Shown piece by piece: positions 22,468 through 24,161 of a stretch of 64,000 nt of DNA; the first letter of the stretch is position 1; each line of letters begins with the position of its first letter. The notes below the pieces were generated by a model that was given only the letters and a program-made list of their open reading frames with translations, made no database searches and had not been told where the DNA came from. The position numbers were made by a program, and so were the translations under genes. The stretch comes from Salinirubrum litoreum (GTDB lineage: Archaea; Halobacteriota; Halobacteria; Halobacteriales; Haloferacaceae): contig NZ_JAJCVJ010000002.1 in assembly GCF_020567425.1 (NCBI RefSeq), positions 661,068 to 725,067 on the forward strand, read 5' to 3'.

Positions 22468-22827
22468 ATGACAGACGAGACTCCAGCCGACGAGACTGCA
22501 CCGGCTCACGACCACGAGGAGACTCCACTCGACCGCGACCACGAGGAGATACTCGACGAGTTGTTCGCCGTCATCGAGTCCCGGAAGACCGACCTCCCCG
22601 AGGACTCCTACACGACCTCGCTGTTCACCCACGAGAAGGGCGAGAACCGCGTCTTGGAGAAACTCGGCGAGGAGTCGACCGAGATCGTGCTCGCGGCGAA
22701 GGACGACGATCCCGACGAACTCCTCCACGAGAGCGCCGACTTCGTCTACCACCTGCTCGTGCTCCTGGCGATGAAGGACCTCGAACTCGACGACCTGCGC
22801 GCGGAACTGGCCGAGCGGTTCGGCTGA
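22468..22827 (+). CDS. hisE: Phosphoribosyl-ATP diphosphatase
   Basis: 119-residue enzyme for the second step of histidine synthesis, hydrolysing PR-ATP to PR-AMP. The first 25 residues form an acidic/histidine extension (PADETAPAHDHEETPLDRDH); the all-helical core has LFAVIESRKTDLPEDSYTTS, KLGEESTEIVLAAKD and HESADFVYHLLVLLA, which include the Glu/Asp metal ligands (EExxE and ExxD). hisF is elsewhere in this window (40302-41114), so the pathway is dispersed. Confidence 0.96.
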   Translation: MTDETPADETAPAHDHEETPLDRDHEEILDELFAVIESRKTDLPEDSYTTSLFTHEKGENRVLEKLGEESTEIVLAAKDDDPDELLHESADFVYHLLVLLAMKDLELDDLRAELAERFG

Positions 22828-22890: not shown

Positions 22891-23622
22891 ATGGACGTGT
22901 CCGTGGAGGTCGTCGGCGAGACGACCCACGAGGTGACGGTCGGCGACGACGCGACGTACGCCGACCTCCTGCGCGCGGTCGACTGTAGCCCCCACGAGGT
23001 GTCGGTCCTCGTGGATGGCTCGCCGGTCCCGGAGGACCAACCGGTCGAGACCGGGGAGGTGCAGGTGTTGCGACTGATCAAAGGCGGTGACGGATCGGCG
23101 GCCTCGGACGACCACGAGGAGTCCGCCGCCACCACCGACGGCGGCCGACTCGCCTTCGAACTCCCGAACGTCGGCCCCGGCCCGGACCCCTTCCGCCTCG
23201 CGGACGTGACGGCGGACTTCCTCGTGCTGTTCTTCCAGCGCGACTACTACTGCACGAACTGCCGGGCGCAGGTCCAGACGCTCGCCGACCGATACGACGA
23301 GTTCCGCGACCGTGGGGCCGAGATCGCGTCGGTCCTCCCGGAGTCAGTCGAACAGACCCGCGAGTGGCAGCAGCAGTACGACCTCCCGTACCCACTGCTG
23401 GCCGACCCGGACGCGGCGGTCGGCGACCAGTACGACCAGCCAGTGCGGTTCGGCCCCCTCGGGAAACTCTCGGACTTCTTCGGCCGGATGCCGGAGGTCG
23501 TCCTCCTCGATCTGCGTGGCGACCGCCCCGAAATCGCCTACAGCTACCGGAGCAAGTCCACGTTCGACCGCCCCGAGGTCGAGGATCTGCTCGCGGAACT
23601 CGACGACCTCCGCGAGGTGTGA
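22891..23622 (+). CDS. SAMP2-like ubiquitin-fold modifier fused to a redoxin domain
   Basis: 243 residues. Residues 1-66 closely match haloarchaeal SAMP2, the ubiquitin-like protein that is joined to lysines and also serves as sulfur carrier for tRNA thiolation: TYADLLRAVDCSPHEVSVLV, VDGSPVPEDQPVE and the end VLRLIKGG with Gly65-Gly66. SAMP2 normally stops there. Here an acidic linker (67-85) runs into a redoxin domain (about 86-243) with DFLVLFFQRDYYCTNCRAQV, so a CxxC pair at 121/124, then PLLADPDAAVGDQYD. No ATG, GTG or TTG codon occurs in frame between residues 67 and 105, so the redoxin has no separate start before its first strand. The usual chain-forming Lys58 of Haloferax SAMP2 is Gln here; only Lys64 remains in the modifier half. 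It follows hisE by 63 bases. Confidence 0.88.
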   Translation: MDVSVEVVGETTHEVTVGDDATYADLLRAVDCSPHEVSVLVDGSPVPEDQPVETGEVQVLRLIKGGDGSAASDDHEESAATTDGGRLAFELPNVGPGPDPFRLADVTADFLVLFFQRDYYCTNCRAQVQTLADRYDEFRDRGAEIASVLPESVEQTREWQQQYDLPYPLLADPDAAVGDQYDQPVRFGPLGKLSDFFGRMPEVVLLDLRGDRPEIAYSYRSKSTFDRPEVEDLLAELDDLREV

Positions 23623-23669: not shown

Positions 23670-24161
23670 ATGACTCCCGATCACCCCGACATCCGCCCGG
23701 CGACCGACGACGACCTCGTGGGCGTGATGCGCGTCCTCGACGCCGGCTTGCTCGACGCCGACGCCGAGACGATCGGCCGCCGGATCGCCGAGACCGAACC
23801 GGGATCGGTGCTCGTCGCCGACGCCGACGGCCGGGTCGTCGGTGCGGTCGTCCTCGGAGAGCGTCCGGCGTGGGTCGCCGAGGTGTTCGCGGGCTCTGTC
23901 GCCGGTGACGATACCGGTGGACGTGACGACCCCGACGACGAGCACGTCGAAGCCATCGCTGTCGGGCGCTCTCGACGCGGGCAGGGACTCGGGACCGCCC
24001 TCCTACGGGCCGCCCGCGAGTCGGTCGTGGGCGACCTGACCGCCGACTTCGCCGCGTCGGTCCGGCCGTTCTACGAGTCGCTGGACTGCCGGATCGAGAC
24101 GGTCGACGACCCGGCGTCGGATGGCCGGTCGCCCGGGTGTCGCCTCGTCGCTCGTGTGTGA
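23670..24161 (+). CDS. GNAT family N-acetyltransferase
   Basis: 163-residue acetyl-CoA-dependent transferase. N-terminal IRPATDDDLVGVMRVLDAGL is the family's first strand-helix; GSVLVADADGRVVGAVVLG gives strands 2-3; EAIAVGRSRRGQGLGTALL contains the R-R-G-Q-G-L-G acetyl-CoA pyrophosphate loop. An acidic insert (about 78-93) is halophile-like. It follows the SAMP2-redoxin gene by 47 bases and could share its transcript. Whether it acetylates a protein or a small molecule is unknown. Confidence 0.9.
   Translation: MTPDHPDIRPATDDDLVGVMRVLDAGLLDADAETIGRRIAETEPGSVLVADADGRVVGAVVLGERPAWVAEVFAGSVAGDDTGGRDDPDDEHVEAIAVGRSRRGQGLGTALLRAARESVVGDLTADFAASVRPFYESLDCRIETVDDPASDGRSPGCRLVARV

What the first reader, a model, noticed from the sequence alone, without database searches (positions are those of the whole stretch)
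22891..23622. SAMP2 ubiquitin-like modifier fused in frame to a redoxin domain
The first 66 residues are a complete SAMP2 ending in Gly-Gly, where the free protein stops. Here the frame continues through a 19-residue acidic linker into a thioredoxin-fold redoxin with a CxxC pair (121/124). For SAMP2 to be activated by the E1-like UbaA it needs an exposed Gly-Gly end, so the protein would have to be cut after Gly66 (a JAMM-type desampylase is the obvious candidate), copying eukaryotic ubiquitin precursors fused to ribosomal proteins. If not cut, SAMP2 would be a permanent domain of a redox enzyme. Sampylation and tRNA thiolation both relate to oxidative stress and sulfur flow, so a joint precursor would set a 1:1 ratio. 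In the sequence the residue matching Lys58, used for SAMP2 chains in Haloferax volcanii, is Gln, leaving Lys64 alone. The sequence at the junction (GGCGGTGACGG) contains an out-of-frame TGA, as though loss of one base at an old stop created the fusion.
Basis: partly seen in the sequence, partly recalled or inferred. Interest (0 to 1): 0.82.

Follow-up and report, generated by a model that had tools for sequence, protein, structure and literature searches.

The report
SAMP2 made as a redoxin-fused precursor
In this salt-loving archaeon the only copy of a ubiquitin-like protein is made joined to a redox-type protein and almost certainly has to be cut free; related species repeatedly lost the stop codon at the same spot, but only where a matching cutting enzyme (JAMM1) is encoded, which is evidence for an archaeal counterpart of ubiquitin-precursor processing.

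Summary
The fusion is real: 22891-23622 (+) encodes 243 aa, SAMP2 (1-66, ending KGG), a 20-residue linker, then an AhpC/TSA-type redoxin. It is not a sequencing slip: the linker has no start codon, and in-frame SAMP2-redoxin fusions occur in Halorussus (17 loci), Haloparvum and Halopenitus, by at least three separate events. Elsewhere the two genes are neighbours with a stop after Gly-Gly. The window genome has no other SAMP2, yet keeps UbaA, NcsA and two JAMM proteases. The wider pattern decides the interpretation: of 214 distinct haloarchaeal SAMP2 genes, 49 have 1-17-residue tails after Gly-Gly, 22 are fused to redoxin and two to an acetyltransferase; all keep Gly-Gly. Such extensions occur in 66 of 158 genomes with a JAMM1 gene and in none of 112 without (genus-level, family-stratified p = 0.0025; one 63%-complete MAG ends KGGGG). 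Best explanation: SAMP2 is made as a precursor and JAMM1 cuts after Gly66, as HvJAMM1 does to an artificial SAMP1-MoaE fusion. Cleavage itself is inferred, not shown. The 'lost base', Lys58 and 1:1-dose ideas are not supported. New variant of a known kind (ubiquitin-like precursor fusions such as MoaX).

The parts
22891..23088 (+). SAMP2 domain, residues 1-66, ending Lys64-Gly65-Gly66
   Evidence: Pfam PF21965 and NCBIfam NF041919 over their cut-offs; aligned 1-66 to H. volcanii SAMP2 2L32/4HRS
23083..23088 (+). Gly65-Gly66 codons GGC GGT; predicted cut between 23088 and 23089 (Gly66-Asp67)
   Evidence: read from sequence; Gly-Gly kept in all SAMP2 with tails or fusions; cut site inferred
23089..23148 (+). 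acidic linker, residues 67-86, no in-frame ATG/GTG/TTG; predicted disordered
   Evidence: pLDDT below 50 for residues 63-85 in the AlphaFold2 model
23149..23619 (+). AhpC/TSA-like (thioredoxin-fold) redoxin domain, residues 87-243
   Evidence: Pfam PF00578/PF08534; fold matches to peroxiredoxins and ResA
23251..23262 (+). CxxC pair Cys121 and Cys124
   Evidence: read from sequence
23620..23622 (+). stop codon of the fused ORF
22468..22827 (+). upstream gene, phosphoribosyl-ATP pyrophosphohydrolase (hisE)
   Evidence: Pfam PF01503
23670..24161 (+). downstream gene, GNAT acetyltransferase; 37% identical over 143 aligned columns to the domain fused to SAMP2 in L168
   Evidence: Pfam Acetyltransf_7/_1; BLASTP E 5e-7

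Best explanation
The gene makes a SAMP2 precursor. SAMP2 folds as an independent beta-grasp domain on a flexible linker; a JAMM1-type zinc protease encoded elsewhere in the genome cuts after Gly66, releasing SAMP2 with a free Gly-Gly end for UbaA (protein conjugation and, through NcsA, tRNA thiolation) and releasing the redoxin with the linker as its N-terminal tail. Because JAMM1 restores the correct end, loss of the SAMP2 stop codon is tolerated in JAMM1-bearing haloarchaea: this produced short tails many times and, where a gene lay close downstream, fusions to that gene. Shown here: fusion, recurrence, single SAMP2 copy, retained Gly-Gly, intact JAMM1 motif, and the strict association of extensions with JAMM1. 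Inferred: the cleavage, its position, and the enzyme.
For: Only SAMP2 in the genome while UbaA/ThiF, NcsA and two Prok-JAB proteins with HxHx7SxxD motifs are kept; one matches P. furiosus JAMM1 (5LD9/5LDA), the other AfJAMM. Gly-Gly and the residues RLIK before it are invariant in all 22 redoxin fusions while the following positions vary strongly (entropy 1.3 to 3.2 bits); Gly codons differ only synonymously. Fused SAMP2 is under purifying selection (Halorussus median pN 0.027, pS 0.278). Fusion partners differ: redoxin in at least three origins (one-clade AU test p = 1.7e-10, pairwise unions p 0.003-0.008) and GNAT in two genomes. 49 further SAMP2 genes have short tails. Extensions in 66/158 JAMM1+ genomes and 0/112 JAMM1- genomes; genus table 19 with/28 without versus 0/30; family-stratified exact p = 0.0025. 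JAMM2-type alone is not enough: G046 and G058 have only that type and end exactly at Gly-Gly. [quoted passage not shown]). Linker predicted disordered.
Against: No protein-level data; uncut protein could persist in part, as residual MoaX does (PMC4326299). HvJAMM1 was shown on a SAMP1 linear fusion, not on a natural SAMP2 one. The JAMM1 association is correlational; the species tree was handled only by stratifying on family and counting genera. The JAMM1+ genomes were partly chosen by similarity to the window protein, which inflates the genome-level (less so the genus-level) contrast. One JAMM1-negative, 63%-complete MAG (G187) ends KGGGG; it was counted as not needing processing, a rule set after seeing it.
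Confidence: 0.8

Rival explanations
1. SAMP2 is a permanent, uncut domain of a redox enzyme (a docking or substrate-handling module), and its modifier role is lost or taken over by SAMP1/SAMP3.
For: Both domains are intact in the window; SAMP2 and redoxin genes are neighbours in many genera, hinting at related function.
Against: It is the only SAMP2 while UbaA and NcsA remain; Gly-Gly is invariant though useless in an internal position; partners vary (redoxin, GNAT, or a few residues); CxxC decays in several Halorussus fusions; extensions never occur without JAMM1.
Confidence: 0.1
2. Cleavage after Gly66 is done by a protease other than JAMM1 (JAMM2 or a general protease), the JAMM1 association being historical.
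For: JAMM2-type is present in all nine genomes checked; MoaX in mycobacteria is cut by an unidentified protease (PMC4326299).
Against: Genomes with JAMM2-type but no JAMM1 end exactly at Gly-Gly; 0/112 extensions without JAMM1; HvJAMM1 has the required activity (PMC4443979).
Confidence: 0.12
3. Sequencing or assembly error removed the stop between two separate genes.
For: Unfused relatives have a stop directly after Gly-Gly; an out-of-frame TGA lies at the junction.
Against: The redoxin frame has no start codon between Gly-Gly and its first strand; the same architecture occurs in Haloparvum, Halopenitus (3 genomes) and Halorussus-type genomes (17 loci).
Confidence: 0.02

Closest known systems
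Mycobacterium tuberculosis MoaX (MoaD-MoaE fusion)
   Same: Ubiquitin-like sulfur carrier fused N-terminally to a second protein, cut right after internal Gly-Gly (Gly82-Ser83), cutting needed for function (PMC4326299)
   Different: Partner is the sulfur-accepting enzyme subunit itself; other MoaD/MoaE copies exist; the protease was unidentified. Here the partner is a redoxin and SAMP2 is single-copy.
Artificial SAMP1-MoaE fusion cut by HvJAMM1; natural Ubl-MoaE fusions
   Same: Haloarchaeal SAMP linear fusion cut precisely after Gly-Gly by JAMM1 in vitro; in vivo cutting depends on jamm1 (PMC4443979)
   Different: Engineered fusion of another SAMP; that paper found natural archaeal Ubl-MoaE fusions only in Crenarchaeota.
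Caldiarchaeum ubiquitin and SAMP precursors cut by CsRpn11 and CsJAMM
   Same: Archaeal ubiquitin-like precursors with residues after Gly-Gly, processed by JAMM proteases (PMC6043591)
   Different: Short extensions in a distant archaeal group; no natural fusion to a functional protein is described in the passages read.
Eukaryotic ubiquitin-ribosomal protein fusions
   Same: Modifier made as N-terminal part of a fusion and released at Gly-Gly (general knowledge)
   Different: Cut by other deubiquitinases; partner is conserved across eukaryotes; here partners vary and fusions arose repeatedly.
Thaumarchaeal Ubl-Cgi121 fusion; Thermococcales Ubl genes next to OsmC-type peroxiredoxins
   Same: Archaeal Ubl fused to, or next to, another gene, including a peroxiredoxin neighbourhood (PMC2948915)
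   Different: Different Ubl families and partners; OsmC is not an AhpC/TSA redoxin; no processing evidence there.

Membership tests
SAMP2 (NCBIfam NF041919 / PF21965) | Beta-grasp sequence over family cut-off, full length | tested here: met
   115.6 bits vs 70; 107.2 vs 27; aligned 1-66 to 2L32/4HRS
SAMP2 (NCBIfam NF041919 / PF21965) | Gly-Gly motif at the SAMP2 end | tested here: met
   Gly65-Gly66, kept in all fusions
SAMP2 (NCBIfam NF041919 / PF21965) | Gly-Gly exposed as the C terminus of the mature protein | not testable with these tools
   not exposed in the encoded protein; needs cleavage, which only an experiment can show
Ubiquitin-like precursor fusion (MoaX-like in working) | Ubl N-terminal, internal Gly-Gly at the junction, flexible linker, second folded domain | tested here: met
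Ubiquitin-like precursor fusion (MoaX-like in working) | Candidate processing protease encoded in the same genome | tested here: met
   JAMM1-type L043 with HxHx7SxxD, matches PfJAMM1
Ubiquitin-like precursor fusion (MoaX-like in working) | Cleavage after Gly-Gly demonstrated | not testable with these tools
   supported only by comparative association
AhpC/TSA redoxin (PF00578, PF08534) | Domain match over cut-off | tested here: met
   68.5 vs 26 and 39.5 vs 26.6 bits
Typical peroxiredoxin | PxxxTxxC peroxidatic motif | tested here: not met
   FFQRDYYCTNC has no Thr/Ser three residues before either Cys and no Pro seven before; a thioredoxin-like CxxC is present instead, so it is not filed as a peroxiredoxin
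JAMM1 desampylase (L043) | Prok-JAB domain with HxHx7SxxD and similarity to PfJAMM1 | tested here: met
   Prok-JAB 68.4 bits vs 25; motif; 5LD9 E 1.7e-6

The most novel reading that the evidence does not exclude
Across haloarchaea SAMP2 is commonly made as a proprotein matured by JAMM1, a housekeeping role for this protease besides removing SAMPs from conjugates; where JAMM1 is lost the stop codon after Gly-Gly becomes obligatory, and where it is kept SAMP2 drifts into tails and repeated fusions with whatever gene lies downstream, a convergent counterpart of ubiquitin-fusion genes.
Probability: 0.72. Interest if true: 0.7.

Novelty: new variant of a known kind. Interest (0 to 1): 0.64.

Why it matters
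Maturation of haloarchaeal SAMPs has had no obvious need because the H. volcanii SAMP2 already ends in Gly-Gly (2L32/4HRS). If the reading here is right, JAMM1 is required to make usable SAMP2 in many species, not only to recycle it; natural fusions and tails become ready-made substrates for measuring its specificity; and the tie between a protease and the fate of a stop codon shows how ubiquitin-type fusion genes can arise by relaxed constraint. It is directly testable in Haloferax, where some species carry two-residue tails (RS, RA, RD).

Tried and rejected
Sequencing-error reading: rejected (no start codon in the linker; recurrence). Single origin of the fusion: rejected by AU tests. Second SAMP2 elsewhere: none over cut-off. 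Lys58 loss tied to fusion: rejected, the position varies freely in unfused SAMP2. Old-stop relic: not seen in other fused lineages, left open. G291 (genus g32) first looked like a further fusion by tblastn, but its SAMP2 is disrupted before Gly-Gly in a 72%-complete MAG and it was left out. Hepowit et al. 2012 on HvJAMM1 is not held. Paper searches for a described SAMP2-redoxin fusion or haloarchaeal SAMP2 precursors found none, but the library holds only open-licence papers.

Full report
OBSERVATION. The ORF 22891-23622 (+) is real and unbroken: 243 residues from ATG to TGA. Residues 1-66 are SAMP2 by Pfam, by the NCBIfam equivalog and by end-to-end alignment with the solved H. volcanii SAMP2. 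Residues 88-233 match AhpC-TSA and Redoxin; sequence and fold searches find BCP-type peroxiredoxins and ResA. The PxxxTxxC motif of peroxiredoxins is missing and a CxxC is present, so 'thioredoxin-fold redoxin' is as far as the name should go. The junction, residues 63-85, is predicted disordered (pLDDT below 50).

NOT AN ARTEFACT. If a stop had been lost by a sequencing error, the redoxin would need its own start; there is no ATG, GTG or TTG in frame in the linker. The same architecture is found elsewhere. In 170 genomes of the family, 392 of the order and named genomes, SAMP2 runs without a stop into the redoxin in Haloparvum sedimenti, in Halopenitus malekzadehii and persicus plus one more genome of that genus, and in 17 distinct Halorussus-type loci. 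In many other genera (Haloferax larsenii and elongans, Halohasta, Halonotius, Haloarchaeobius, Haloarcula, Natronorubrum and others) the redoxin gene follows a SAMP2 gene that stops at Gly-Gly or within a few residues of it. In Haloarchaeobius-type loci the stop reads GGATGACC, so an ATG overlaps the TGA. The tandem is therefore the common arrangement from which fusions arose.

NUMBER OF ORIGINS. A tree of the redoxin domains needs four changes between fused and unfused: the window lineage, Haloparvum with Halopenitus, Halorussus, and an apparent reversal in one Halorussus-type genome (G243, tail AV). Holding all fused rows as one clade is rejected (p-AU 1.7e-10); each pairwise union is rejected at p 0.003-0.008. 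Single-domain trees are short, so 'at least three' should be read as strongly favoured rather than proven.

IS SAMP2 STILL USED? In the window genome and the four other fused genomes examined in full the fused gene is the only SAMP2 over cut-off, while UbaA-type ThiF, NcsA-type TIGR00269 and two JAB proteins are present. In H. volcanii SAMP2 and UbaA are important for thiolated tRNA-Lys and for protein conjugation, and UbaA acts on the C-terminal carboxylate of SAMP2 (PMC4048286). A buried Gly-Gly cannot serve. SAMP2 in the fused genes is under purifying selection (Halorussus median pN 0.027, pS 0.278); in Halopenitus the short linker changes faster at amino-acid sites than either domain. In all 22 redoxin fusions the six residues RLIKGG are invariant and the positions straight after are highly variable.

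THE WIDER PATTERN. Reading the SAMP2 ends in 214 distinct loci gave 141 stopping exactly at Gly-Gly, 49 with tails of 1-17 residues (RS, RA, AP, SSPR, SASSPDGSESR and so on), 22 fused to redoxin and two fused to a GNAT acetyltransferase. The GNAT domain of L168 is related to the gene that lies next downstream in the window. Gly-Gly is kept throughout. The residue after Gly-Gly is Ser in 37 of 73 and Ala in 14, never aromatic or proline; this is suggestive of protease preference but not corrected for relatedness.

WHICH PROTEASE. A profile of JAMM1-type sequences (A2) separates genomes cleanly into with and without. SAMP2 ends were read in 158 genomes with JAMM1 and 112 without. Extensions needing removal occur in 66 of 158 and 0 of 112. 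At genus level 19 of 47 against 0 of 30; stratified by family the exact probability is 0.0025. The one JAMM1-negative genome with extra residues, a 63%-complete MAG (G187), ends KGGGG and so still ends in Gly-Gly. G046 and G058, which have only the JAMM2-type protein, end exactly at Gly-Gly. The window genome's JAMM1 (L043) has the HxHx7SxxD motif and matches PfJAMM1. [quoted passage not shown] in vivo cutting was seen only with the jamm1 gene and was not detected once Gly-Gly was deleted (PMC4443979). Together these make JAMM1 the leading candidate.

MECHANISM, WITH STATUS. Translation of one chain: shown by sequence. Independent folding on a flexible linker: predicted. Cut after Gly66 by JAMM1: inferred from association and precedent. 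Use of freed SAMP2 by UbaA and NcsA: inferred from H. volcanii. Function of the freed redoxin: not established; its frequent place next to SAMP2 suggests a related role in thiol chemistry, but loss of a CxxC cysteine in several Halorussus fusions argues that the fusion was not selected for redox coupling. Tolerated stop-codon loss explains tails, varied partners and the JAMM1 link with one cause.

KNOWN AND NEW. Ubl precursor fusions cut at Gly-Gly are known: MoaX (PMC4326299), Ubl-MoaE fusions (PMC4443979), Caldiarchaeum precursors (PMC6043591); a Ubl-Cgi121 fusion is conserved in thaumarchaea (PMC2948915). A SAMP2-redoxin fusion, SAMP2 tails in haloarchaea and their tie to JAMM1 were not found in the papers searched; subscription papers were not searchable. 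Hence a new variant of a known kind.

LIMITS. No protein data. JAMM1+ genomes were partly picked by similarity to the window protein. Relatedness was handled by genus counts within families, not by a full species tree.

Noticed in passing
L104, L105, L128, L129, L141, L143, L182 and others: Many non-fused haloarchaeal SAMP2 genes encode 1-17 residues after Gly-Gly, including Haloferax marinum (RS) and H. profundi (RA), so even close relatives of the model species make SAMP2 precursors.
   Followed up: yes
L168/L229 (A07HR67 MAG) and L250 (G077): SAMP2 fused in frame to a GNAT acetyltransferase, of the same kind as the gene at 23670-24161 in the window.
   Followed up: partly
L085, L091, L119, L210, L234, L236 (Halorussus-type fusions); L130, L133, L135, L138 (Natrialbaceae neighbours): The CxxC pair of the redoxin is often reduced to one cysteine, so these partners may no longer be thiol oxidoreductases.
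   Followed up: partly
L233 (G243): One genome of the Halorussus-type genus has the two genes separate, SAMP2 ending Gly-Gly-Ala-Val, apparently a reversal of the fusion.
   Followed up: partly
L043:1237-1887 (-), residues ~132-216: The JAMM1-type protein of the window genome carries a long acidic, Ala-rich stretch around a WRWTGDEFESL segment near its C terminus, unlike its ~150-residue relatives.
   Followed up: no
G056:C2:177794-179005 and G066:C8:50033-51687: A JAMM-type gene lies directly next to a second ThiF/E1-like gene, hinting at additional ubiquitin-like gene pairs.
   Followed up: no
L010, L011, L012, L013, L014 junctions: Where the genes are separate, T-rich TATA-like stretches lie a few tens of bases before the redoxin ATG, suggesting the redoxin often has its own promoter, which the fusion would remove.
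   Followed up: no
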